DNA of 64,000 nucleotides from a virus. This document shows positions 8,241 through 48,804 of the stretch, piece by piece; the stretch's first letter is position 1; every line of letters starts with the position of its first letter. The stretch spans positions 62,001 through 126,000 of IMG/VR virus record IMGVR_UViG_3300013233_000856; one strand, given 5' to 3'. The translations under genes were made by a program, and so were the position numbers. The notes beneath the pieces were generated by a model. That model was not told where the DNA came from, made no database searches, and saw only the letters and a list, made by a program, of their open reading frames with translations.

Positions 8241-8960
8241 TCACCGCACCAGCTCGCGGACATCCAGGAGGTCGGCGTATAGCCTACCAGACCTCCCTAT
8301 CTCCTCATTGAGCCCCGCTATCAGTTCGGAGCGCTCTGCCACCAGCTCACCCTCGCGTTCCTCCAGCAGGAAGACTATCTCGTCGCCGGACCCAGCCAGG
8401 GCAACCTTGGCCGCCTCGAGGGCCTTCCTCACCTCGTTCAGTCTGCGCTGGTTCCCTATGACCGCAGCCTTTGCGTCCGCCACCCTATTCTGCGAGGCCT
8501 TAAGGTCGGTGATCAGGCGCGCGAACGTCCTCTCTGACCCATCCACCAGTTTCGCGACCTGCTCGTCATCCAGACCAAGGTCAGACAGGTCCAGCTCGTT
8601 CGTGTCCTGCTGAAGGGACACCGTCTCCGGAACCTGGTCGTCGACGACCTGCTCGACCTGCTCCTCAGGACCGAACTCCAGGATCTGTCCCGACTCAAAC
8701 TGCTTGCGCCCGTCCATGGTCTCGGTACGACCACCGGCTGACACGTTGAAGACAAGCTTGCCCAACGAGTTCCTGCGCACCTTCGGCTCATGAATCCTAT
8801 CAGGTAGACTCCGCAGTTCCTCTCCACGAAACAGTTCAAGGATGACCAACGAAGACCTAGGAGGATCCTCGCTGGAGACAAGGAAGGTAATGCTCTGCCC
8901 GTCCTCCGGGGTCCTCGGCAGCTCAGGTAGGTACAATGCAGTCGGAAATCCGATGATCAC
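8241..8960 (-). CDS. Baseplate-region protein with coiled coil
   Basis: A 239-residue protein lying between the gp5-like and gp25-like genes. It starts at the GTG at 8960, which overlaps the previous TGA (GTGA), with CGGAG upstream. The N-terminal half is beta-rich (VIIGFPTALYLPELP; SITFLVSSEDPP). The second half (from about 130) is a long charged coiled coil (KASQNRVADAKAAVIGNQRR and LEEREGELVAERSELIAGLN). I do not recognise the family. An AAAAGATA sequence about 30 bases upstream resembles the late motif. Position argues for a baseplate or tail-assembly role. Confidence 0.6.
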   Translation of the reverse strand: MIIGFPTALYLPELPRTPEDGQSITFLVSSEDPPRSSLVILELFRGEELRSLPDRIHEPKVRRNSLGKLVFNVSAGGRTETMDGRKQFESGQILEFGPEEQVEQVVDDQVPETVSLQQDTNELDLSDLGLDDEQVAKLVDGSERTFARLITDLKASQNRVADAKAAVIGNQRRLNEVRKALEAAKVALAGSGDEIVFLLEEREGELVAERSELIAGLNEEIGRSGRLYADLLDVRELVR

Positions 8961-11116
8961 TGGTTGGCTCCGATGTCGCACGACGTCACTATCTTTTCCT
9001 CTATCTCCTTGATCTCCTCGAGTGACTCGGCCCGGTCCTCAGGCTCGCGCTTGCCCTGCTTGACCTCCTCGGGATCGATGACATCGCTACCACCTGGCAC
9101 CGTCGGAACGTTGAGGAAGAGGGCACCGCTGGTCAGCTTCATCCTACCACCGCCACCGCGCATGTCCACCGACGTCCCTGCATTCAGGCTGATCCTACTG
9201 CTGGCCTTGACGGCGACGTCCTCTCCGATCACCTCCACCCTCTTGCTGGAGAATATCTGGACAGGACCGCCCGCCACAGTCTTGATGACTATCGAGCCAT
9301 TGCCGTCATGGATACAGATGTACTGTTCCGACCCTTCCGCCCCGCGCCACACGCCCATCTTCTCGTTTCGCGAGAACCACATTCCACGGTGATCAATGTC
9401 AACCAGCTCGGTCCATGGGCCGTCCGATCCGAACCTGCCGTCCCGCATCTCCACGCCCTGATTAAGGCCTATCTCGGCAGCTTCGAAGGGCTTGGGCTCA
9501 GGTCTCCTGCCATTGTCGCCACCAGCTGCAGTCTTCAGGCGGATATAGCCGTTGAACTTGTCCAGCTTGAGGTGATAGGTGTCCTTCTCCGGATCCTCGA
9601 CCATGGCGGCCTTCAGGGCGAACTCGTTCTCGGCCAGCCCGCGCCAGTTTCTGCACAGGTCTCCCTTCAGGTCGGTGCACATCATGACGTAGTCGAACCG
9701 GTCGTTGAGCTCAATCACCTTGGACTTCGGCGAATACCACCTAGTGGTGTTCAGCTCGTCCTTGTCGTTCGCCTCTATGGCGAAGCCTCGCGAGGACTCC
9801 CTCTCGCTCGGCTCGCTCTCCCAGGAGCGGACGGACTTGAGCATCCAGCCGTTCCCGCGCGGTGCCTCCTCCGTGTCAGCGTTGCGCGGGTCCGTTCCCC
9901 TGTCGTCCAGGACGAACTTTGAGCCCCACCTAGTGACTATCCTGATCTGCCTTGCATCCCTTCCGGTCCAGTCCGAGTCTATCTCCCCGTCCGGCCCAGC
10001 ACCTAGCTCGTCAATGAGTAGCCTCTTATAGAACTTGTCCTCCTCTGGGTGGAAGCCCATGTCCATAGCCTGGATGAGGTGCCCGCCCTTGGTGCGCAGC
10101 TTAACCCATCGTTCGTCCGTATTGTCCCACTTCGACAGGACGCGCGGCTCTCCATATTCACCGTCGCGGGAACGTCCTCCGACGCTGTCGCAGCCGGACA
10201 TGGCCCCGCCCTTCTGTGCCCAACCAACGTCGCGCATCTCGAACTTGTGCCCGGCCCTGGTCCTGATCTCGTAGCGCCGCTGGTCCCCATCCTCAGAGAC
10301 CGGGACATCCTCGTTGAACAGCCTAGTGAGGTACTTGTACCTCTTGACCTCGAAGGGCCTATCCTTGTCGAAGTCTCCCTCGAACTCTCCAAGATCCCCG
10401 TCCCCACCAGATCCTCCTTCTCCTGCCTTCGACCACCAGTACCCGACGTCGGAGTGGATGGCGTAGGTTCCGTACTTGGACGTCCTGACCATGTACTTCC
10501 TGTCGGGATCGTTGACGAGCGGTGATTTCCCCTTCTGAAACTGCTTCATGGAGACGGCGTCGGTCCCGGTCGGGGCTGCCCGGTCGGCGTGTTCGACCGG
10601 GAAGAAGCCCACCGAGCTCACCATGTCGAACGACCCGTAGCGGTCACGGGTTCCGAGCGACATGGGCCTGCGGTCCTTGGGAAGGTACTCGACCAGCGCG
10701 TCGTCCGGCCTCTCGTCAGCAGTCTCGTCCTCCTTGAGCGCAAGCGGCGGCTCGACGTACAGTCCTTCGAGCGGATATCTCTTGCGGCGCGTGCCCATCG
10801 CAAATCCGAACCAGAGGATGTTGTACGGGTGATTCTTCTCGAACTGCACCCAGACGACGTCCCCTATGACTGGATGATACCAGGTTCCGGCGTTCTTTCC
10901 TCCGAACCATGGCGCACGCTCCGCCCATGGGCACTGCTCGGGCTTGAGGTCGAAGTCATGCAGCTCCGGGCACTTTACGCGCACCCTGTGCATCTGGAGC
11001 GGATCGTTGGTCTCCACGACGAGTGCGCGGTAGAATCCGTGGAACCGGTCTGAAAGTGCCCTTGTGCGCTCGGCGTTGAACTTCTGCCATATGCGTGATA
11101 TGTTGTCTTCGAACAT
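8957..11116 (-). CDS. Baseplate hub spike protein, gp5/VgrG-like (no lysozyme domain)
   Basis: A 719-residue central-spike protein. The N-terminal 110 residues form an OB-fold typical of gp5/VgrG (FYRALVVETNDPLQMHRVRV; HPVIGDVVWVQFEKNHP). The middle holds repeated beta modules (YMVRTSKYGTYAIHSDVGYW; RYEIRTRAGHKFEMRDVGW; WVKLRTKGGHLIQAMDMGF), and the C-terminus a beta-helix needle (SKRVEVIGEDVAVKASSRIS). No lysozyme motif is visible, so peptidoglycan cutting must come from another protein. ATG at 11116 lies three bases after the TAG of the gp53-like gene. The repeated [V/I]-R-T-x-x-G modules are unusually numerous for the family. Confidence 0.8.
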   Translation of the reverse strand: MFEDNISRIWQKFNAERTRALSDRFHGFYRALVVETNDPLQMHRVRVKCPELHDFDLKPEQCPWAERAPWFGGKNAGTWYHPVIGDVVWVQFEKNHPYNILWFGFAMGTRRKRYPLEGLYVEPPLALKEDETADERPDDALVEYLPKDRRPMSLGTRDRYGSFDMVSSVGFFPVEHADRAAPTGTDAVSMKQFQKGKSPLVNDPDRKYMVRTSKYGTYAIHSDVGYWWSKAGEGGSGGDGDLGEFEGDFDKDRPFEVKRYKYLTRLFNEDVPVSEDGDQRRYEIRTRAGHKFEMRDVGWAQKGGAMSGCDSVGGRSRDGEYGEPRVLSKWDNTDERWVKLRTKGGHLIQAMDMGFHPEEDKFYKRLLIDELGAGPDGEIDSDWTGRDARQIRIVTRWGSKFVLDDRGTDPRNADTEEAPRGNGWMLKSVRSWESEPSERESSRGFAIEANDKDELNTTRWYSPKSKVIELNDRFDYVMMCTDLKGDLCRNWRGLAENEFALKAAMVEDPEKDTYHLKLDKFNGYIRLKTAAGGDNGRRPEPKPFEAAEIGLNQGVEMRDGRFGSDGPWTELVDIDHRGMWFSRNEKMGVWRGAEGSEQYICIHDGNGSIVIKTVAGGPVQIFSSKRVEVIGEDVAVKASSRISLNAGTSVDMRGGGGRMKLTSGALFLNVPTVPGGSDVIDPEEVKQGKREPEDRAESLEEIKEIEEKIVTSCDIGANQ

Positions 11117-11120
11117 GTTA

Positions 11121-11429
11121 CTATCTTACCAGGGAGGCGGCTGGAAGGCGTATCGTAGTGCCGGTAAGGGGCCATCCGAGAGGATTCTGTGGGCGGTTGA
11201 ACATCACGACGACCCATGCCAGCAACGGCGTTCCGTACTGCTGCTGGGCAATTAGGTCCGGACGACCGGCCAGGTCCTGGTCTATGGCGATCTCGAGGAC
11301 GTCGTCGTCGTCAAGCAGGGATTCGTCGACGAAGGACGGACGCGTCCACAGACCGAAGGTGACGTGGCCGTCCTTGGTGACGATCTGGGTCCCGCTGAAC
11401 CTGGAGAAAGGCCTGATCTCTATCGCCAT
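11121..11429 (-). CDS. Baseplate wedge protein, gp53-like
   Basis: A 102-residue protein. The order of segments, a beta-rich N-terminus, an acidic turn (ESLLDDDDVLEIAID), then GTPLLAWVVVMFNRPQNPLG and a hydrophobic end (LTGTTIRLPA), matches short gp53-type baseplate wedge proteins, where the 'W-x-I-x-x-x-N-x-x-x-N-P' segment is characteristic. It sits between the tail-tube-cap-like gene and the spike gene, as expected for a baseplate operon. ATG at 11429. Family assignment is by pattern, not by alignment. Confidence 0.65.
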   Translation of the reverse strand: MAIEIRPFSRFSGTQIVTKDGHVTFGLWTRPSFVDESLLDDDDVLEIAIDQDLAGRPDLIAQQQYGTPLLAWVVVMFNRPQNPLGWPLTGTTIRLPAASLVR

Positions 11430-11430
11430 G

Positions 11431-12006
11431 TTATGCCCACTTCGGCTTGAAGGTCTGCAGCTGTCCGCCCTGCTTCACCTTGTTCTTGTCGCCCTTTTTC
11501 TTCTTTTTATCGGTTATGGTGAGATTCGTGGCTATCTTCATGGTCAGAGTGCACTTGGAGTACAGCGGATAGGGTTTCGACTGGTGTATCACGAGTTCTG
11601 GGCCATACTGTATATTGACGTCCATTAGCCTAAACGGTATTAGCTCGGGCAGTATCTCGCCGTACCTGACCATAACCGTCGGAAACTTCTCCGCGTTGGT
11701 CACGAAGTACAGCTTTACCCTGCGCAGCTCCTCCGCTATCTTGGCACCGGTGAAGACGTCGCTGGTCGCTATGTACTCCCATTCCATCTGCACCTGTCTG
11801 GCCGTCGCTCCGCGCGCTATCGCCACCGGCTCGCTGGAGAAGACGGCAATCTCGCTCCAGTTGATGCTGTTGCTCTCAGAGATGATCTTGGGTGGGAACT
11901 GGAACTTGACCTTGCCTCCACCGGCCCCGAGACCACTCTTCGGCATAATCAGCTCGATGTCACACAGCAGAGCCTTCTCGAATGGAATGAGGTTTTCGTC
12001 AGGCAT
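11431..12006 (-). CDS. Tail tube cap / baseplate tube-initiator-like protein
   Basis: A 191-residue protein between the tape measure and gp53-like genes. The beta-rich core (KVKFQFPPKIISESNSINW; MEWEYIATSDVFTGAKIAEE; FPTVMVRYGEILPEL; MDVNIQYGPELVI; CTLTMKIATNLTI) looks like a tail-tube-fold protein of the kind that starts the tube on the hub (gp48/gp54 type or LysM-linked hub proteins). The C-terminus is lysine-rich (TDKKKKKGDKNKVKQ). ATG at 12006. The fold is inferred from strand pattern and gene order. Confidence 0.55.
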   Translation of the reverse strand: MPDENLIPFEKALLCDIELIMPKSGLGAGGGKVKFQFPPKIISESNSINWSEIAVFSSEPVAIARGATARQVQMEWEYIATSDVFTGAKIAEELRRVKLYFVTNAEKFPTVMVRYGEILPELIPFRLMDVNIQYGPELVIHQSKPYPLYSKCTLTMKIATNLTITDKKKKKGDKNKVKQGGQLQTFKPKWA

Positions 12007-12009
12007 GGT

Positions 12010-15000
12010 CTAGGTCCACTGGTTCGCGCTGGGAGCGAGGCCCTTGTTGCCCTTCTCCTTGATCTCAGAGAGATGCTCGGCCGAGGCTCCGAGCCACTTC
12101 ATCAGCTCCCTGCCGTCCGGCATCCTCTCTCCTATGCGGGCTAACATCTCGTTCTGCTCCGTCAGCAGACGCAACTGCGTCTCACCAGGCTTTCCGCCAG
12201 GCTTCTCCATCTCCTCGTTGCCGACGAGAGCTGTCTTCATCGGCACGGCCCTGCTACGTGGCCCGCCGCCAAACAGCGAAGCAACTCTACTGAGACTGCC
12301 CTTTATGGGCTCCAACGGGATCCTTTTCGCCTGTTCAACCTGATATGCCCTTTTCAGGGCAGCTCTTCGCGCAGCGGCAACGTCCTCAGTCGCTCCCTTC
12401 TGGCCCGTAAAGCCCTTAACGAGACCACTAGCTGCGCGCATGATTCCCATTGCCTTCGACAATCCTACACGGGGTCCACGCGCAACCGTGGGCTTACGCC
12501 TGGTAACACGCCTAGCAGACCTGCCGGGAGCCATCGCAGTACGAACAGCCTTGCCGATCCGGGCCCCAACCGCTGGGTGGACAGCATGTCCTACAATGCT
12601 GCTCTCGATCCTTGCAAGCCTGCCGTCTATGCTCGCTAATCCCTTGTTTATCTCTCCCAACCCGGCCAGGACCTTTCCGTCACTGTTTGCCACCATGCCT
12701 GTACCGGTCCTCCCGGCGTGCTTAGCAAGGAATTTACTGAGCACTGAGCTAGCAGTCCCCTTCTTTTTCTTCTCGACGTTAGCGGCAGACGCTACCTTGG
12801 CCCGCTTCTGCTCGGCCTTAGCGGCGTCTACGGTCTTTTTGTGGACGTCCGCCACGGCCTTGGCCCGCTTCTGCTCGGCCTTGGCCGACCCGACCGTGGC
12901 CACGTGCGACTTCTTGACCTCCTTGCCGATCCTCGCCTCCGCTGACGCCCCCTTTGCCCTTTCCTTGTTGGCCGCAGCGACCGCCTTGTGCTGCTTTGCC
13001 TCCCTCGCGGACATTTCGGCAGTCAGCTTATCAATCTGTGCTGCAACCTTTCTGCGTTCCTTGATATCCTTTCCGGCCAGGCTCTTCTTGAGCTGCGCGA
13101 TCTTCTTCTCGGTCGCGTTCTTTTCTACTGCAGCGAACTTCTTCCGCATCTTGATTGCGTGCCTATCCTGCTCTCCCTCGGCACTGAAGAGATTCTTCAC
13201 CCATCGATAGGCCTTGACCGCCTTGGATCCGAGCCAGGTGAAGGCCTTGCCAATGCCGGTAATCTTGTCTATCCACTTCCCGATCTTCCATCCAATGAAG
13301 GCAGCTCCTATAAGGGCTATTGCCTCACCTGCCACAACCAACACGCCAGTCAAGCCTGCAGCACCAACAGCTCCGACAACACCCATGACGGCCTCTGCGA
13401 CCACAGGCAGGACGGTTTCAGCAAAGATGCCGAACAGGCTAAAGACGGTAGAGGCGATGCCAAACAGCGAGCTAAGGCCGCCAATGATGGCACCTGCCGC
13501 AGCGACGGCAATGATGCGCCAGTCGCCGAATATATCCATGAAGCCTGACTTCCTTAGCATCTCCACTAGCTTTCCGACCTCGTCCTGAACGCCCTGGAGG
13601 CTGATCTGGACCTTGGCCACGGCCTGGCCGACGGTCAGTGCGAGTTTACGGTAGGTATTCTCCGTATCCTTGGCCCCCTCCTTAAGCTTATCTGTAGCTG
13701 CCTTTGTATGGTCAGGAGCCTTCGATATGCCATTGACCGCGTCCTGAATGCCCTTCTCTGTCATCGTGGACAGAAGCCGGAGCTGCTTTATTCCACCTGC
13801 AACACTGCTGCCCGTAGCGGCCTTTATGCGCGCCTCCAGGTCTATGGTGGACTGACCGGCGGCCTTACGCGCCTTGAACTCCTTGAGCATCGCCTTGGCG
13901 GCGTTCTGCATGACCGTCATCCGTTCCTGGATGGTCATGTTCATCATCTTGCTCTGGCTTACCTGGCTTCCGAGAATCTTGGAGAACTTTATCGCCTCTT
14001 CGGTGTCGAACGCCCGGTCCGTGACCTGCTGGACCTCGCCAGTGTTTATGCCGAGCTTCTTTGCGGCAGCGACTCCGGCCATGACCGTCTTGTTCCAGCG
14101 TGCCATCTGGACGACTCCCGAAGATCCCATGAAGATGGAGTCCTGAGCCAGCTTGACCATTAGCTGATCGATCTCTGCCGAGGTCAGTTGTAGGTCCTTG
14201 GCGGCGGTCTGCATCTCGACCATGCTCTTCGTCGCAAGGTCTAGCTTGTCCACCGATCCGCCTGCCGTGACGACCATTGCGTCCATGGTCTTCACCATGC
14301 GCGCGATGGCGTCAGTGCTTGCGCCGGTCGTCCTGTTCAGGCTGGCTACCCCCATCCGTAGCTTCATTACTCTGTCTCTGCTGTTTCCGAACATGGTCAG
14401 CGAAGTCGTGGCCGCCGTAACCTCCTTGGAAAGGAGGGGCATTCCCTTGGCGGTCATCACACGTATCTCGCTGGCCAGCCCCCGCATCGTTCCTATGCCA
14501 CGGAACTGTATCAGGTGAAAGGCCTCCTCCTGCTGCATGGCCTCCATTATCCCGACCTTGTACAGTCCAGTCAGGGACAGTAGTTCACCGAGCTTGCCCA
14601 TGCCGACCACGTCAAGACCCTTCCTGAGACCAGACTTGACATGGTCCACCAGACCGCCCATCTTCTTGAAGACGGCACTCATGCCGCCCGCCACTACGGA
14701 TCCAACTCGCATTGTCTTGACGAACTTGCCGCCCTGCAGAACCTGCTCCTCTATGTCCTTGACTCGTTCGTCATCCTGCTTAAGACCCTTCTTTCCGATC
14801 TTAAGCCTCCCTTTGTTCTGCTTCTCCATGAACCCATAGAACTTGCGCCACATAACCTGGAACTTGGTCTGCTTCTTCTCGTTCTTGTTCTGGTCCTTCT
14901 GAAAACCAGTGTTGGTCTTGCCGAACTTCTTAAGATTCTTCTCCGCAGTCTCCGCTCCTCCTCCACCGCTGCGCTGCGCGGCCACCATCGTCTCCTGAGC

Positions 15001-31757: not shown

Positions 31758-32909
31758 TCACGGCACAGAACGAAGCAGCTTCCAGCCGCGCCACCGCCGA
31801 CCGACGCTCACCCTCAAGGGCATCATTAAGCCCCCGACACCCTCCAACGGCCTGGCCACTATCTCCTGAAGCGACGGAAGTAGTTCTCCAATCGAGTTCT
31901 CTGGCGCGCAGAGGACGACCGAATCGTGAACCTCCGTCAACACGTTCTGTGGACACCTCCGCAGCAACCTGGCCATCACGGAATGCATGGCGTGCGCCAC
32001 GGAGCCTTGAAACTGCGCATTGAACACGCTAAGCTCATTGCGGCCATTCTCTCCCCCGACGCCATACCTACGCCCCAGGATCGTCTCCACGAAGCCCTCC
32101 GACCGCATCCTGGCAACCCTGTCCGCCATCCACTTCCTAAACTCCGGAAAAGGCTGAAAGACCGGATCGTCGGTCCTGAGCGAATAAAAGGAACGGAAGA
32201 AATCACGCTTGCACTGCTCCCTAGAGGGCTCGCCGAGGCACTCCGCTATCACGCTGTACGGATCACCCCTGGAGAACGCAGCGGCCATCGGCCCGTCCCC
32301 GGACATGAACGCAGCCATGCGCACGTCCGCAGCCGTCCAGTCGAGACAAACGAACCAGTCATAATCATCCCGAACATGCCTGACGGCAGTCTCCCCGGTC
32401 ATTCCCTGAACGTTGAAGCCAGTCGTCCTCGAACGGCCAGTATAGGTCCCAAGATCATAGTGGATGCCATCGACGCGCCTATATCCGTGCATGACCCCAC
32501 GCTGCTGCAGAATCGCATACATGACTGAAGCCCTGCCCATCAACACGCGCCACGGATCTTCACGGACGCTCCGGACAGACTCTACGGCGGCCCTCAACAA
32601 CGACTTCCGGACCGACGCTGCGTCCCTGGCCCGCCCAGCCGCGACCGGCACGCACGACTCAACCAGCCCATGTCCGCCATGAAGCTCAAGACCAAACCCC
32701 AGCAAGTGCGTGACGCAGTCGTTACATAACGCCCCATCCTCGAGCAGCTCACGCACCCTCTGTACGCCATTCCTGACCTGCTTCAGCCTGAGACCAGTAC
32801 CGGGAAGATACGCGTCTATGAACTCCACCCTGCCGTCCTCCACCACGACGGACGACAATGGCCTAGGGTGATTCCTGCTCTTATCGAACAGCGTTACGAC
32901 ATGGCGCAT
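31758..32909 (-). CDS. Short family A DNA polymerase (polymerase domain only)
   Basis: A 383-residue protein containing the PolA palm and fingers: motif A DWFVCLDWTAADVRM with Asp190, motif B REQCKRDFFRSFYSL (about 229-243), and motif C VLTEVHDSVVL (about 323-333) where the usual VHDE is VHDS. ETILGRRYGVGGENGRNE also fits the O-helix-following segment. No 3'-5' exonuclease domain is present and the thumb is shortened. The usual motif C glutamate is replaced by Ser, which may weaken or change activity. It coexists with a split polymerase III alpha. Confidence 0.7.
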   Translation of the reverse strand: MRHVVTLFDKSRNHPRPLSSVVVEDGRVEFIDAYLPGTGLRLKQVRNGVQRVRELLEDGALCNDCVTHLLGFGLELHGGHGLVESCVPVAAGRARDAASVRKSLLRAAVESVRSVREDPWRVLMGRASVMYAILQQRGVMHGYRRVDGIHYDLGTYTGRSRTTGFNVQGMTGETAVRHVRDDYDWFVCLDWTAADVRMAAFMSGDGPMAAAFSRGDPYSVIAECLGEPSREQCKRDFFRSFYSLRTDDPVFQPFPEFRKWMADRVARMRSEGFVETILGRRYGVGGENGRNELSVFNAQFQGSVAHAMHSVMARLLRRCPQNVLTEVHDSVVLCAPENSIGELLPSLQEIVARPLEGVGGLMMPLRVSVGRRWRGWKLLRSVP

Positions 32910-42738: not shown

Positions 42739-44112
42739 CTAGTACTCGAAGACGAACCTCGCCCTGCGCAAGCCCCACTTCCTCACGTATCCGCGCTCGG
42801 CTGCAAGCTCCGCCTCCCTCATCCCCATCTTCCGGGCATGGTTGTACATCGTCTTCTTGTGCATCACGAACCCGTCCCGGTCTACGTACCAGTATGAGCG
42901 ACCAGACCACCCATCGAACTTCCAGTTGCACGCCCGGTACACCGACCCAGAATGCCCGAACGTACCGTCCGCAAACGACAACAGCAGCCTAGTGGACGAC
43001 CTGACGCCGCGCAGCATCCGCATCGACCTGGACAAGAACCAGCTCAGCAGATTTCTGTTCTCATATCCAGCCCTCCTGCACAGCCTGGTAAGCTCCCTCA
43101 CCTCCCCAGGGCTCCGCCCGAGCCTGATCAGGCTCTCATTCCTCGTCACCCCGGCAAACGTGCACACCGCGACCAGTTCGCCATCCATCACGGCTCCGAA
43201 CCTTATCTGGCTACGGCCATGGCCCAGCGAATAGGTATAGTGATACTTCTGGATAAACTCCACGGCCTCACGGTTTCCTATCGGGACTACCGAAAGGTCC
43301 GACAGGTCCACGTGGACCATGCCCACGTCCGCACCCGTCCATGAGCGCACGAGCTCCACCACCTTGCCCCTACACAGGAACTCATGTTCCCATATCGTCC
43401 TGACCTTAAGCTCCGGAAAGTACCGCTCCACATAGGTCGTCTTCGCCTTGTCGTTCCTTACGTGCACCGGAGTGTTGTGGAAATAATCACCATTGCACTC
43501 TATCAGGACTCCATGATCGGGCAGAAAGCAGTCGAACGCATAATGCCCGATCCTGTGCTCCGGCACGTGCTCGACACCGAGCTCATCAAGGATCGCATAG
43601 AGCGTCCTCTGGATGCCTGAGATCCTCGGCATCGGAGCAAAGATGCCGGTCCCAGCCTCCCTCTGGGAGTCCAGGATCCTCCTTCTCTTGGCGCGGTATC
43701 CGTCGTCCAGCCAATACCTGCAACGAGCGGCGCAGACCCTCTGACGGTACCCCTCATCCTCTGCGAACTTCCTGCTAACCGTCTCTCCTATCCTCCTACG
43801 GACTTCCCCTGACATGGCCTCCCTACTGCGCCTGCTCCTCTCCTCGCCGGACAGTCCATCCCAGAACGCCCTGGATGCCCTAGACGCCCTCTCCCTGGCC
43901 TCCCTGGAGGACCAAGCCCTAGCCTGCGAGGACTTGCGCGCAGCGACGACGACCGGATGCCTGCGGTAGCACTTAGGGCATAGGTAGGATCCCACGTTAC
44001 ACGCCTGTCTCCTGCACTTACGGCGGTGCTCCTTCGGGACCACGCGGTCCTCCCTGCCACACTCCGAGCAGCGCGCAGTGTTCCCGGACAGGCACTGGTC
44101 GAAGTCTACCAC
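42739..44112 (-). CDS. Second Vsr-like nuclease fused to a Mom-like domain
   Basis: A 457-residue protein, paralogous in layout to the 1950 gene. Residues 1-60 hold a zinc ribbon (CSECGRED; CPKCYRR) in place of the HTH. Residues 65-150 are basic repeats. Residues about 165-250 form the nuclease (FDCFLPDHGVLIECNGDYFH, ECNGD at 205-209, EHEF at 242-245). Residues about 290-450 are Mom-like (LGHGRSQIRFGAVMDGELVA; VRELTRLCRRAGY; LSFADGTFGHSGSVYRACNW at 378-397). It overlaps the end of the polymerase III alpha C-part by 7 bases and starts with GTG. It may be a mobile element next to the split polymerase. Confidence 0.7.
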   Translation of the reverse strand: MVDFDQCLSGNTARCSECGREDRVVPKEHRRKCRRQACNVGSYLCPKCYRRHPVVVAARKSSQARAWSSREARERASRASRAFWDGLSGEERSRRSREAMSGEVRRRIGETVSRKFAEDEGYRQRVCAARCRYWLDDGYRAKRRRILDSQREAGTGIFAPMPRISGIQRTLYAILDELGVEHVPEHRIGHYAFDCFLPDHGVLIECNGDYFHNTPVHVRNDKAKTTYVERYFPELKVRTIWEHEFLCRGKVVELVRSWTGADVGMVHVDLSDLSVVPIGNREAVEFIQKYHYTYSLGHGRSQIRFGAVMDGELVAVCTFAGVTRNESLIRLGRSPGEVRELTRLCRRAGYENRNLLSWFLSRSMRMLRGVRSSTRLLLSFADGTFGHSGSVYRACNWKFDGWSGRSYWYVDRDGFVMHKKTMYNHARKMGMREAELAAERGYVRKWGLRRARFVFEY

Positions 44113-46580
44113 AGCACCTGTCCCTCCGAGTACACGTCAAGTTCCTCCTCCGGAGAGGACGCCTCTCCGCGCCGGCTCAGGGGGACTATCACGGACCGAG
44201 GCCCTATCTTGAAGCTGTCCCTCTCCCTATCGTACACGACGTTCATCCTGATCCCGGCTCCCTCCTGCAGGGCCCTCTTGTCGGACGAACCATAGGCGTC
44301 CGCCCACACGAAAACCCTAGCCGTCCGTATCCCGTCATTGACGTGCAGCACATAGAACTGATTGCCCGCCTTGGACGACCTACTCTCTATCTTCTCCACC
44401 ACGCCCTCAAGCGTACCGCCGACCTTCGCCCTCTCGACCGTATGGCCATGTGACCGGAAGGCCTCCATCGGAGAGCTCCAATAGTGTCCGAGAAACTCCT
44501 TCTCCATCTCCAGACGCTCAGCCAGGGACCAGTCCGTCCCGACCGTGGACATGACCTGCCCCCTGGTAACCGTTATCTTAGGTCTCCACTTCGCGATCTT
44601 GGACGGCAGCTTCTTCCTCCTGGGATATAGCTTGAAGTACTCGCTCGCCTGCCTCGCGCGCTCCTTCTCTACCTTCTCCTGCGGCCACTCGAACTTGGCT
44701 TCTATCTCCCGGCGGAGAGCCGTTATCTCCTTTCCAGAGCAGTACTTGTAGAGATACCAGGTCCAGAGAGCCTTCCTGTTCGGATGGATGGAGTCGAACC
44801 CACCCAGCTTTATGAGCCTCTCGAAGATCCTCTTGTCCTTCCCGCACCGCTCGACCATCTCGTCCACGTCACGGAAGGGACCACATACCGACGCAAGCTT
44901 CTCCGCCGCCTTGTCTCCAATTCCCTTGACGGACGCGAGGCCGGGCAAGACCTGGTCCCCACTGACGGTAAAGTCCTTCTCAAGGGAGTTGACGTCCATG
45001 GGGGCAAACTCCACGCCGTCCGACCTTGCCGAGCCCATGTAGCTGCTCATCTTATAGGCAGGACAGGCTGACAGGACTGCAGCCCACCATTCGGCCGGAT
45101 AGTGCGCCTTGAGATACAGGCACCTGTAGGTCATGATGCTGTAGGCCACGGCATGGGACTTATTGAATGCGTATCTCCCAAAGGTAACCATCTGGTCCCA
45201 CCATTTCCGCGCCTCCTCCTCGCCGAGCTCCTTGCCGGCCCCGGACATCCACCTCTCCTCGACCCCAGGAAGCTTGTCCAGCCACTTCTTGGAGACTATC
45301 TTGCGGGCCTTCTCCGCCTCAGGAACAGTGAACCTACCAATCTGGATCCACACCGCAGTGAGCTGCTCCTGAAAGCAAATTATCCCATGCGTCTCCTCAA
45401 GGATGCGCACGATCCTAGGATCCATCCCTTTCCTCCAGGACCCCGAATGATCATCGCGCCGCCTGATGTACTCCGGAATCATGTCCATCGGACCCGGACG
45501 ACCGAGAGCATTATACACGATCAGGTCCCAGAAGTCCCTAACGCCACCGTCCGAAATGATCCCCTTCTGGATGTCAGTCTCGATCTGGAATACAGAGTCC
45601 GTCCGCAGATCATTGCACATCCGGAGAGCCTCGACGTCGTTGAACGAGATCGGCTCCCTCCTCCCGTCCCTCTCAAGATATCCTGCGACCGGAAGATCGG
45701 ACCTCGGATCCATCCCGTCCCAGACGACCAGGACGCCCCTATTGCGCAAGACAAGGTTCCCCGCCTGCCAGACATAGAACATCGTCTTCAAGCCGAGGAC
45801 GTCGAACTTGATGAGCCCGAACTTCGAGAGCTGCATGCTCCGGCCCTCGGTCCACTGGCTCGTCCATGTCCCCTTCATCCTAGACAGGGGCACCACCCCA
45901 CGCAGGTCCCTATCCGCAATCACGATCCCACCCGCATGCGTAGACTGCGCGCGTATCTTGCCCACGAGCCGAAAGGCCAGATCGACTATCTCCGGATGCT
46001 CACTCCTGTACCGCATAAACTCCTCAAGACGAGAAGCGTCCACATGAGCCTGCCTGCGCACCTCCGGATCCGGATCCTCTGCGCGCTCAACAAGGCCATC
46101 TATGTCCCCCAGCGACATGTCGTCGAACTCGTCCGGAAGACCCTTGGTCATCCTGGACACTGCACGCCAGTCCGCCCCGAGCGCACGCGCCACGTCCGTC
46201 AGAGCACTCCTTGGCTTATACGTCACCCAGTTTCCTATACTGCAGACATGCACATACCTCTCCCTGGCATATTGCTTGATCGTCTCCCGCGCATGCGGCA
46301 AGAAGTCAAGGTCTATGTCAGGGAAGTCCGTGAGCCGCACCCATTCATGCGAAACTGCCTCGGCCACGGGATCGACGGGAGTCATCCCAAGGAGAAACGG
46401 TATGACAAGGCCGTTCTGATTGTGTTCCCACCTACGCCCCTCAGACACGCACTCGGTCCAGTATGTCTCCGCGCCCTGCTTCGAAATCTCGGCGACCTCA
46501 GTCTGAAGACGCTCGACATACTCCCCACCCCTCACGGCAGCAGCCGCTGACGCTCTAGAGCACACCTCGTCCCAGTCCAT
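44106..46580 (-). CDS. dnaE: DNA polymerase III alpha subunit, C-terminal part (catalytic aspartates)
   Basis: An 824-residue protein that starts inside the palm. PDIDLDF (residues 87-93) and FDVLGL (Asp260) are the catalytic aspartates. GKIRAQSTHAGGIVIADRD, FQIETDIQKG, VYNALGRPGPM, GIICFQEQL and FGRYAFNKSHAVAYS follow in family order, then a helix-hairpin-helix (LASVKGIGDKAAEKLAS) and a C-terminal OB-fold (LEGVVEKIESRSSKAGNQFY). The 86 residues before PDIDLDF have no DnaE equivalent. The N-terminal half of the enzyme is the separate gene at 47458. ATG at 46580 is directly after the preceding stop. Confidence 0.85.
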   Translation of the reverse strand: MDWDEVCSRASAAAAVRGGEYVERLQTEVAEISKQGAETYWTECVSEGRRWEHNQNGLVIPFLLGMTPVDPVAEAVSHEWVRLTDFPDIDLDFLPHARETIKQYARERYVHVCSIGNWVTYKPRSALTDVARALGADWRAVSRMTKGLPDEFDDMSLGDIDGLVERAEDPDPEVRRQAHVDASRLEEFMRYRSEHPEIVDLAFRLVGKIRAQSTHAGGIVIADRDLRGVVPLSRMKGTWTSQWTEGRSMQLSKFGLIKFDVLGLKTMFYVWQAGNLVLRNRGVLVVWDGMDPRSDLPVAGYLERDGRREPISFNDVEALRMCNDLRTDSVFQIETDIQKGIISDGGVRDFWDLIVYNALGRPGPMDMIPEYIRRRDDHSGSWRKGMDPRIVRILEETHGIICFQEQLTAVWIQIGRFTVPEAEKARKIVSKKWLDKLPGVEERWMSGAGKELGEEEARKWWDQMVTFGRYAFNKSHAVAYSIMTYRCLYLKAHYPAEWWAAVLSACPAYKMSSYMGSARSDGVEFAPMDVNSLEKDFTVSGDQVLPGLASVKGIGDKAAEKLASVCGPFRDVDEMVERCGKDKRIFERLIKLGGFDSIHPNRKALWTWYLYKYCSGKEITALRREIEAKFEWPQEKVEKERARQASEYFKLYPRRKKLPSKIAKWRPKITVTRGQVMSTVGTDWSLAERLEMEKEFLGHYWSSPMEAFRSHGHTVERAKVGGTLEGVVEKIESRSSKAGNQFYVLHVNDGIRTARVFVWADAYGSSDKRALQEGAGIRMNVVYDRERDSFKIGPRSVIVPLSRRGEASSPEEELDVYSEGQVLW

Positions 46581-47051
46581 CTAGAACACCCCACTGAAGG
46601 ACTCATTGCCCGCCCTGGCCGAGGTCACCAGCTCCTCACGCATCGACTCCAGCTCATCCGGAGAAGGGATGACCGAACACCTCCCATATTCAAGGGACAG
46701 GTCGCGGACTGTCCAGACCAGACCCGGATCCTTCACCGCCTCGACCCGCCACGTGTCCACGAGCGTGCGCTCCAGGACCAGAGCGGCATAACTGCACGTT
46801 GTGCGCACCACCATAGTCGTCCCCGCCCGCGCGTCCTCCCCGACGCTCCTGAGGATATACTCCATGGCCTTCAGCTCAAGCTGTCTAGCCTTGATGACCA
46901 TCCCGCCTGCATGGACGATGCGCCTGAACCCATGCTTACCGCATGCAGCCGACGCGCTGAACCACGCGCCGTATGGAGACTGCCTAAAGACCACTGCCCT
47001 TGCCTCAACCAGAGCTCCCGTTCCCGGCTTCACCACCTCCATCAGGTCCAT
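46581..47051 (-). CDS. RNase H-fold-like protein (candidate) inside the split polymerase locus
   Basis: A 156-residue protein; ATG at 47051 (MDLMEVVKPG) with GGAGGAG. The order beta-beta-beta (AVVFRQSPYGAWFSASAACG), helix with Glu (ARQLELKAMEYILRSV), strand (TTMVVRTTCSYAALVLERTL) and VKDPGLVWTVRDLSLEYGRC resembles RNase HI, but the catalytic Asp positions are replaced, so it may be inactive. It lies between the two polymerase III alpha parts and abuts the C-part gene. Confidence 0.45.
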   Translation of the reverse strand: MDLMEVVKPGTGALVEARAVVFRQSPYGAWFSASAACGKHGFRRIVHAGGMVIKARQLELKAMEYILRSVGEDARAGTTMVVRTTCSYAALVLERTLVDTWRVEAVKDPGLVWTVRDLSLEYGRCSVIPSPDELESMREELVTSARAGNESFSGVF

Positions 47052-47454
47052 TTCGCTCCTCCAGAATTGATTGTATGCCTCCGACCGCCACCCCGGCGGA
47101 CGACAGTACTCTTGCGGACCTACGGCACGCCGAGACAAGCCCACTCTTGCCCACCAGGAGTGCATCCAGTGAATCCACCGCGACCCGCCCGGCCACGGCC
47201 CCTATCGGACCACACCCCTGCGCAACCATCCTCTCCGCCAGGCCCCTCGCCACGGCACCGACCGGCCCGCACGTCACGTACTCCGCGTCAGCCCAGAACC
47301 TAGACTCGTCCCCGTCAAGATACGAGCGTACCAGGTCCGGCCACTTCGCGAGATATCCGGACGCCGCAGCCAGGCTCCCACAGGACGCCACAAGCAGTCC
47401 AATAGAATGCTCCGCCTCGGACAGCACCCTCCTGAACGAAACCTCATCCACCAT
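47005..47454 (-). CDS. Hypothetical helical protein inside the split polymerase locus
   Basis: A 149-residue protein with ATG at 47454 immediately after the TGA of the polymerase N-part (GGAGTGAGGA as SD). Small, Ala/Gly/Val-rich helices (EAEHSIGLLVASCGSLAAAS; AVARGLAERMVAQGCGPIGA). No motif recognised. It overlaps the 46581 gene by 47 bases. Being between the two polymerase parts, it may be an inserted gene or a bridging subunit. Confidence 0.5.
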   Translation of the reverse strand: MVDEVSFRRVLSEAEHSIGLLVASCGSLAAASGYLAKWPDLVRSYLDGDESRFWADAEYVTCGPVGAVARGLAERMVAQGCGPIGAVAGRVAVDSLDALLVGKSGLVSACRRSARVLSSAGVAVGGIQSILEERNGPDGGGEAGNGSSG

Positions 47455-47457
47455 TCC

Positions 47458-48804
47458 TCACTCCATCTTCACCTGCAGCATCCTGCCGCCCCTGTTCGGG
47501 CTCAGGAACCTGTTGAACGAAAGTCCCCACGCTATGGGATCCAGGGACGTTATCCCCAGAAGCCAGCACACCAAGGACCCGCCCGCACTCCCCCTCGCCG
47601 GACCGATCGGCCAGCCCCTCCTATGGGAGCAGTCCACCAGGTCCTTAGTAATCAGGAAGTACGAGGCAAAGCCCTTCTCGACGAACCTCCTAAGCTCCAG
47701 GATCATCTGCTCCCGATAGGTCACCTCCAGGCCGTCCATCGTCGAATACTTCGTATCATCCAGGTGAAGACCACGCCTCTTGAAGCCCTCCCACGCGGCC
47801 TGCACCAGGACCGGCACGTCGTTCTCAAGCCTAGGTAGCTTCGGCGAGACGTCCGGATCGAACGCCTCGCACATCTCCGCGACCAGCAGCGTCCCGTCAC
47901 AGGCCTTCTCAAACTCCGCCAGCCCTACCCCGTCCGAATAGCCCTTCGTAAGGAAGGTCTTCCGAAGCTCCTCCCTCGTCTTGAAGAACTGCTCGTCCGA
48001 ATTCACGTGGAAAAGCTCCGGATCGTCTACCGTGGTCCCCTGGTCTATCGCCATCATCGTCTTCTGGACCTCGAAGTCACGCCGTTCGAGATAGTGGCAG
48101 TCGTTCGTCAGGACGGTCCGTATTCCGAACCGGCCGGCCAGCTCAACAAGGGTCCTGAAGGCCTTCACGTCCCCAACCTCCTCGTCGAGGCACGGCATCT
48201 GCAGCTCGATGAAGTAGTTCTCACCGAACGCCTCCTTGAACATCTTGACGTACTCGACCGCGCCGCGGAACTCGCCGCCTGAGAGGTTATCCTGCCTGAT
48301 CTCGTGAGCGACTGGACCGTTAAGGCATCCGGAGAGGACGATGAGTCCCTCGGAGTGCGCGGCCAGGTTCTCGAACCACACCCTGGGCTTGTAGAAGAAT
48401 CCGTGCTTTATCGCATAGTTGTTTATCTTCAGGAGGTTGCCGTATCCGGTCATGTTCCTGCACAGGACGGTAATGTGCCTGTTCCTGCGCATCCTGGCGT
48501 TCAGTCCGCGCTGCGTCTCGAGCAGGTCCTTGACCTTTCCTCCGGACTCGACCAGCTTCCTCCTGCGCTGCTCGTAGTCGTTGTAGTACAGCTCGCACCC
48601 CGCTATGAACTTCACGGAGTGCTCAGTTGCCGAGATGTGCGCGTCCGGGATGCTGCTCATCGTCCCGTGCTCGGTTATGGCGAAGGCCGGCCACCCCCGT
48701 TCTGCGCAGGCACCGAAGTAGGCCTCTGGTTCGGCGACCCCGTCCAGCATGCTGAAGATGGTATGGTTGTGCAGGTGCACGAACTGTTCAGGAGCAGCGT
48801 CCAT
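47458..48804 (-). CDS. dnaE: DNA polymerase III alpha subunit, N-terminal part (PHP and first palm half)
   Basis: A 448-residue protein. The PHP domain is at the start: HLHNHTIFSMLDG (10-22) and FAITEHGTMSS (42-52), with HYLERRDFEVQ later. The polymerase part reaches PARGSAGGSLVCWLLGIT and FNRFLSPNR, then stops after ten more residues. In ordinary DnaE the catalytic 'PDFDVDF' follows that FLNPER segment within a few residues; here it opens the separate gene at 44106. ATG at 48804 is preceded by GTATTTTA. Confidence 0.85.
   Translation of the reverse strand: MDAAPEQFVHLHNHTIFSMLDGVAEPEAYFGACAERGWPAFAITEHGTMSSIPDAHISATEHSVKFIAGCELYYNDYEQRRRKLVESGGKVKDLLETQRGLNARMRRNRHITVLCRNMTGYGNLLKINNYAIKHGFFYKPRVWFENLAAHSEGLIVLSGCLNGPVAHEIRQDNLSGGEFRGAVEYVKMFKEAFGENYFIELQMPCLDEEVGDVKAFRTLVELAGRFGIRTVLTNDCHYLERRDFEVQKTMMAIDQGTTVDDPELFHVNSDEQFFKTREELRKTFLTKGYSDGVGLAEFEKACDGTLLVAEMCEAFDPDVSPKLPRLENDVPVLVQAAWEGFKRRGLHLDDTKYSTMDGLEVTYREQMILELRRFVEKGFASYFLITKDLVDCSHRRGWPIGPARGSAGGSLVCWLLGITSLDPIAWGLSFNRFLSPNRGGRMLQVKME

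What the first reader, a model, noticed from the sequence alone, without database searches (positions are those of the whole stretch)
44106..48804. DNA polymerase III alpha split inside its active site, with two genes in between
The N-part (PHP to FLSPNR) and the C-part (from PDIDLDF on) are separate genes. The break is between two palm elements normally a few residues apart. Two ORFs (47005, 46581) lie between them, and a nuclease gene lies next to the C-part. No intein fragment is visible at the ends, so the active polymerase would have to assemble from two chains.
Basis: partly seen in the sequence, partly recalled or inferred. Interest (0 to 1): 0.75.

Follow-up and report, generated by a model that had tools for sequence, protein, structure and literature searches.

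The report
Two-chain phage DNA polymerase III
In a lineage of huge bacterial viruses the main copying enzyme (DNA polymerase III alpha) is encoded as two proteins broken through the middle of its active site, one carrying the nucleotide-binding motif and the other the metal-binding acids, so a working enzyme would have to assemble from two parts without being glued together.

Summary
An N-part (47458-48804, minus strand, 448 aa: PHP plus the palm up to R438) and a C-part (44106-46580, minus, 824 aa: from the catalytic DxD on) are separate genes of one tight operon, with two ORFs between them.

It is neither an error nor a recent break. The same split occurs in at least 41 other uncultivated contigs, most of them large (up to 459 kb). 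Both chains evolve under strong purifying selection.

The C-part starts with a diverged second copy of about 70 residues of the N-part's palm segment. The dNTP-binding GS motif (RGS..GS) is missing from that copy in all 43 C-parts seen, and kept in the N-part of all 61 contigs.

No intein or intron explains the junction. Relatives do carry real split inteins, but at another site (FNK|SHAV), with obvious halves.

Best reading (inferred, not shown): an obligate two-chain polymerase, GS motif from chain N and three aspartates from chain C. One relative (L159), placed inside the split clade by its tree, is a single gene in which the N-copy joins the DxD strand directly.

A minimal split Pol III alpha with this break is published for other jumbo phages. 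This is a new, full-length, overlapping variant.

The parts
47458..48804 (-). N-part of DNA polymerase III alpha (448 aa): PHP nuclease domain plus the first half of the palm with the GS motif
   Evidence: Pfam PHP 5.5e-36; model pLDDT 88.4 aligns to T. aquaticus PolIII alpha 3e0d residues 5-458, Z 36.2
47491..47718 (-). N-copy of the duplicated palm segment (residues 363-438), canonical form
   Evidence: E. coli DnaE ~317-396 by phmmer; conserved in A1
47572..47595 (-). GS (dNTP triphosphate-binding) motif RGSAGGSL, residues 404-411
   Evidence: R404, G405, S406, L411 invariant in 39 sequences; found in all 61 N-part contigs, directly or with an intein inside the motif
47005..47454 (-). ORF X (149 aa), conserved gene between the two parts, function unknown
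   Evidence: family of 22 loci at the same place
46581..47051 (-). ORF Y (156 aa), weak member of an RNase H-like family at the same place
   Evidence: profile E 0.0065 and 0.022; family members match RNase_H 6.9e-5 and RVT_3 7.8e-4
44106..46580 (-). C-part of DNA polymerase III alpha (824 aa): rest of palm, thumb, fingers, HhH, OB
   Evidence: Pfam; model pLDDT 86.5 aligns to 4iqj residues 456-1121, Z 22.9
46323..46526 (-). C-copy of the duplicated palm segment (residues 19-86), GS motif missing
   Evidence: 0 of 43 C-parts have the GS motif; conserved Y..RL..E..EI.KQGA..YW...N.N.L..P.L; low dN/dS
46305..46322 (-). catalytic PDIDLD motif (residues 87-92; D88 and D90 are the metal ligands)
   Evidence: invariant in A2 and A3
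45801..45803 (-). third catalytic aspartate D260 (in KFDVLGL; E. coli D555)
   Evidence: invariant in A3, alignment to DnaE
42739..44112 (-). free-standing homing endonuclease (nuclease domain plus Mom-like domain), hitch-hiker next to the C-part
   Evidence: MTES_1575, Mom, PHROG homing endonuclease; Hef-like homologues in phages; a relative lies between N and C in L107

Best explanation
The two genes encode the two chains of one C-family DNA polymerase that assembles without covalent joining. Chain N brings the PHP domain (probable proofreading nuclease, metal ligands intact) and the palm segment with the GS motif that holds the dNTP triphosphate. Chain C brings the three catalytic aspartates, thumb, fingers, HhH and OB domains. 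Chain C also keeps a diverged, GS-less copy of the N-chain's palm segment, which cannot replace the GS motif and most likely supports or docks the N chain. The split probably arose once, before two large phage clades diverged, by partial duplication of the segment and separation of the copies, followed by loss of GS in the C-copy. It was later undone in one lineage (L159). Shown: the split, the overlap, GS in N only, conservation, selection, absence of an intein or intron at the junction. Inferred: physical assembly, polymerase activity, and the role of the second copy.
For: GS motif in the N-part of all 61 contigs and in 0 of 43 C-parts; 41 contigs hold both parts. All three catalytic aspartates and K258 are invariant in C, PHP ligands nearly invariant in N. 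Both copies are under purifying selection where dS is measurable, e.g. omega 0.046 (N-copy) and 0.032 (C-copy) for L155/L156. Split sequences plus L159 form one clade (SH-aLRT 98); keeping L159 outside is rejected (p 4.9e-5). L159 is one ORF of 1188 aa with a single segment copy and the canonical 38-residue GS-to-DxD spacing (bacterial spacing). The N model covers DnaE to the end of the segment; the C model aligns to C-family structures from residue 79 or later in 11 of 16 rows, so the C-copy is mostly not placed in the canonical slot. Tight operon.
Against: No complex was modelled and nothing was tested in vitro. Two segment copies cannot both occupy one palm site, and the C-copy's role is a guess. 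In 5 of 16 structural rows the C-copy aligns at least partly with the canonical region. A family A polymerase-like ORF is present in all seven records tested, so the split enzyme need not be the only polymerase. In clade II the two genes lie up to 7.3 kb apart.
Confidence: 0.77

Rival explanations
1. Chain C alone is the polymerase and uses its own degenerate segment copy; chain N has become a stand-alone PHP nuclease or regulator whose GS motif is kept for another reason.
For: The C-copy is conserved and under purifying selection and 5 of 16 structural rows align it at least partly with the canonical palm region. The PHP ligands of N are intact.
Against: The GS loop is absent from all 43 C-copies while N keeps the full canonical segment through RF..R. 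The fused relative L159 keeps the N-copy and has no C-copy.
Confidence: 0.13
2. The parts are joined covalently, by split-intein trans-splicing or by a (trans-)splicing intron.
For: Relatives carry split inteins at FNK|SHAV of the C-part and inteins inside the N-part GS motif. In phage KKP_3916 the gene is interrupted at the GS|DxD site by endonuclease-bearing insertions, and phage G has a 1.2 kb gap there.
Against: No intein halves at the window's junction and no non-coding room for intron halves; no Rfam match in the window; joining the ends would leave the palm segment duplicated.
Confidence: 0.03
3. A recent break by the neighbouring homing endonuclease left a damaged polymerase, with the family A polymerase replicating the phage.
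For: A homing endonuclease lies next to the C-part, and one of the same architecture lies between N and C in L107. A family A polymerase-like ORF exists in all seven records tested.
Against: The split is conserved across two divergent clades, with catalytic residues kept on both chains and low dN/dS.
Confidence: 0.05

Closest known systems
Minimal split Pol III alpha of group 2.2 jumbo phages (Iyer et al. 2021, PMC7824862)
   Same: C-family polymerase broken between the NTP-binding half and the Mg/template-binding half. The RaK2 N unit (175 aa, phrog_11127) keeps a GS-like motif and ends just before the DxD.
   Different: That version is minimal (no PHP or other domains), encoded by distant genes, and accompanies a family B polymerase. 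Here the enzyme is full length with PHP, the genes are neighbours in one operon, no family B polymerase was found, and the chains overlap. Whether the published C unit carries such a copy was not determined.
Cyanobacterial split DnaE with split intein; 'fractured genes' with split inteins
   Same: Pol III alpha encoded in two or more pieces; relatives L107, L125, L127, L134, L167 have split-intein halves in their C-parts.
   Different: The N|C junction here has no intein, lies in the palm instead of at FNKSH, and has overlapping chains.
Microbacterium cluster EF phages (PMC7302621, Poultress L023) and Mycobacterium phage Fowlmouth (L024)
   Same: Pol III alpha encoded by two adjacent phage genes.
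   Different: Break sites differ: PHP|palm in Poultress, after the palm in Fowlmouth; GS and DxD stay in one chain and there is no overlap.
Split archaeal family B polymerase of Methanothermobacter; phage genes split by homing endonucleases (Aeh1 nrdA, gene 43)
   Same: Enzymes made of two separately encoded chains without an intein (from general knowledge, not checked here).
   Different: Unrelated enzyme families.

Membership tests
C-family DNA polymerase (DnaE type) | PHP domain followed by pol beta-like palm with GS motif and three Asp, fingers, HhH, OB | tested here: met
   All present, spread over the two chains
Ordinary single-chain DnaE | GS motif and DxD in one polypeptide, 38 residues apart | tested here: not met
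   GS only in N, DxD only in C; 23 bacterial relatives checked all have both, 38 apart
Split-intein DnaE | Intein N-half after the N-extein and C-half before the C-extein | tested here: not met
   No room at either end; true halves seen at another site in relatives
Minimal split Pol III alpha of group 2.2 jumbo phages | Break between NTP-binding and Mg-binding halves | tested here: met
   Same break; RaK2 N unit ends just before the DxD
Minimal split Pol III alpha of group 2.2 jumbo phages | Minimal catalytic core without PHP, next to a family B polymerase | tested here: not met
   PHP present; no family B polymerase in seven records (records may be fragments)
Intron-interrupted polymerase gene (phage G type) | Non-coding intron sequence between the exons | tested here: not met
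   Junctions of 0-3 nt or overlapping ORFs; no Rfam match; C-part has its own start and extra N-terminal copy
Gene split by a homing endonuclease between the parts | Endonuclease gene between the two parts | tested here: not met
   In the window it lies after the C-part; it does lie between the parts in L107

The most novel reading that the evidence does not exclude
A replicative polymerase that has become an obligate heterodimer by reciprocal degeneration of an overlapping duplication: one chain supplies proofreading nuclease and nucleotide-binding loop, the other metals and DNA grip, and the dead copy of the loop segment serves as dedicated docking element. In phages such as L107, L125 and L127 the enzyme comes from three gene pieces, two joined by a split intein and one never joined.
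Probability: 0.5. Interest if true: 0.78.

Novelty: new variant of a known kind. Interest (0 to 1): 0.63.

Why it matters
If true, it shows that the most conserved part of a replicative polymerase, the nucleotidyltransferase core, can work as a two-protein assembly, stable over long evolution in very large phages. It would give a natural split polymerase with a defined break for biochemical control (chain N as a removable nucleotide-binding and proofreading module), and a documented route from one gene to an obligate heterodimer through overlapping duplication, possibly with a reversal in L159.

Tried and rejected
Intein or intron at the junction: searched by eye, by Rfam and by comparison with relatives; rejected. 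Sequencing error or frameshift: rejected by 41 contigs. Endonuclease as cause of the fixed split: not excluded as the origin, but it is sporadic. A close relative among cultured phages: none; best hits are 24-35% identical, mostly single-chain enzymes or other breaks. A C-unit of the RaK2 split enzyme: two searches found none, so its overlap could not be compared. Host-genome relatives: only unsplit bacterial dnaE. Pfam DNA_pol3_beta_2 clamp: none in nine records, which may be fragments. RNase H assignment of Y: only weak profile support.

Full report
Observation. Two minus-strand ORFs make up one DNA polymerase III alpha: N-part 47458-48804 (448 aa) and C-part 44106-46580 (824 aa), with ORFs X (47005-47454) and Y (46581-47051) between them. 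Pfam gives PHP and the first part of DNA_pol3_alpha in N, and the rest of that profile, fingers and HhH in C. The record is a 140,546-base uncultivated virus contig. The operon is tight: 3 nt between N and X, X/Y overlap, Y TAG followed directly by C ATG, C stop overlapping the start of the endonuclease gene.

The overlap. phmmer aligns N to E. coli DnaE through residue 396 and C from residue 317. C therefore begins with a diverged copy of the segment that ends N. The N-copy has the canonical GPARGSAGGSLVCWLLGITSLDP...RFLSPNR. The C-copy reads EYVERLQTEVAEISKQGAETYWTECVSEGRRWEHNQNGLVIPFLLGMTPVDP...TDFPDIDLDF, without the GS loop. The break lies in the stretch of about 40 residues that, in C-family polymerases only, separates the GS motif from the next palm strand (PMC11646218).

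Relatives. Four scans of viral contigs gave 61 contigs with an N-only part and 43 with a C-part, 41 with both; some are near-duplicates. The GS motif is present in the N-part of all 61: 55 match the strict pattern, five have an intein inserted between RG and S, one reads RGSGVASL. None of the 43 C-parts has it in its first 200 residues. The gap between the genes ranges from 334 to 7,308 nt. Both copies of the segment have low dN/dS where dS is not saturated (L155/L156: 0.046 and 0.032; L004/L006: 0.003 and 0.057; most other pairs are saturated). PHP ligands are nearly invariant in N; D88, D90 and D260 are invariant in C.

History. A concatenated tree puts all 32 split taxa and one unsplit sequence, L159, in one clade (SH-aLRT 98), with two subclades at 100. 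Forcing L159 outside is rejected (lnL 179 lower, p-AU 4.9e-5). L159 is a single 1188-aa ORF with one segment copy and a GS-to-DxD spacing of 38 residues, as in all 23 bacterial relatives. The simplest account is one split with overlap and one later re-fusion that kept the N-copy; several independent splits with the same GS-less copy seem less likely but are not excluded.

Structure. AlphaFold models of the separate chains are confident (pLDDT 88.4 and 86.5). The N model matches DnaE from the PHP domain through the segment (3e0d, Z 36.2). The C model matches C-family structures from residue 79 or later in 11 of 16 rows (4iqj, Z 22.9), which suggests that its own copy leaves the canonical slot free. 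Five rows align it at least partly, so this is suggestive only.

Joining excluded. Five relatives (L107, L125, L127, L134, L167) have the C-part divided again at FNK|SHAV with clear split-intein halves in separate genes, and L007 has an intein there in one frame. This shows what a trans-intein looks like in this family; the N|C junction has nothing of the kind. The GS|DxD site is interrupted by endonuclease-bearing insertions in phage KKP_3916 and by a 1.2 kb gap in phage G, so it is a recurrent insertion site and such an element may have started the split; the window has no non-coding sequence there.

Neighbours. X belongs to a family found at this place in 22 loci; a second conserved family there is RNase H-like, with Y as a weak member. 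The nuclease beside the C-part is a sporadic homing endonuclease with a Mom-like domain; one of the same architecture lies between N and C in L107.

Prior knowledge. Iyer et al. 2021 (PMC7824862) described a minimal split Pol III alpha with the same division of NTP- and Mg-binding halves in group 2.2 jumbo phages and proposed that the halves reconstitute an enzyme. Microbacterium cluster EF phages have two Pol III alpha genes (PMC7302621) with another break. No paper found describes a full-length, overlapping split.

Verdict. Real and conserved; most likely an obligate two-chain polymerase; a new variant of a known kind. Complex formation and activity remain untested.

Noticed in passing
window 31758-32909 (minus): A 383-aa family A DNA polymerase-like ORF (Pfam DNA_pol_A 7.8e-15) without an exonuclease domain; a homologue lies roughly 8-13 kb from the C-part in the related records whose positions were compared, and all seven records tested have one, so these phages carry both C- and A-family polymerase genes.
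   Followed up: partly
L010:5090-5345, L124:5235-5525, L164:11988-12278: In L010 and in the identical pair L124/L164 the C-part is broken a second time: the segment copy ends in a degenerate Hint (intein-like) remnant, and stop codons fall exactly between PD and IDID of the catalytic motif (inserted ATATGA or TAGTGAC). How the DxD strand is then translated is unclear.
   Followed up: partly
L122, L125, L131, L162, L163 N-parts: Inteins inserted inside the GS motif itself, between RG and SAGGS or SAVGS.
   Followed up: partly
L107, L125, L127, L134, L167 C-parts: Split inteins at FNK|SHAV, a few residues from the cyanobacterial DnaE intein site, so the polymerase comes from three gene pieces.
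   Followed up: partly
L159 (187 kb contig), 8944-12510: Unsplit polymerase placed inside the split clade by its tree: a possible re-fusion with canonical spacing.
   Followed up: yes
L025 (Alicyclobacillus phage KKP_3916): dnaE gene cut into four ORFs with endonuclease genes between, annotated as hypothetical proteins; probably an unrecognised intron-bearing polymerase gene.
   Followed up: partly
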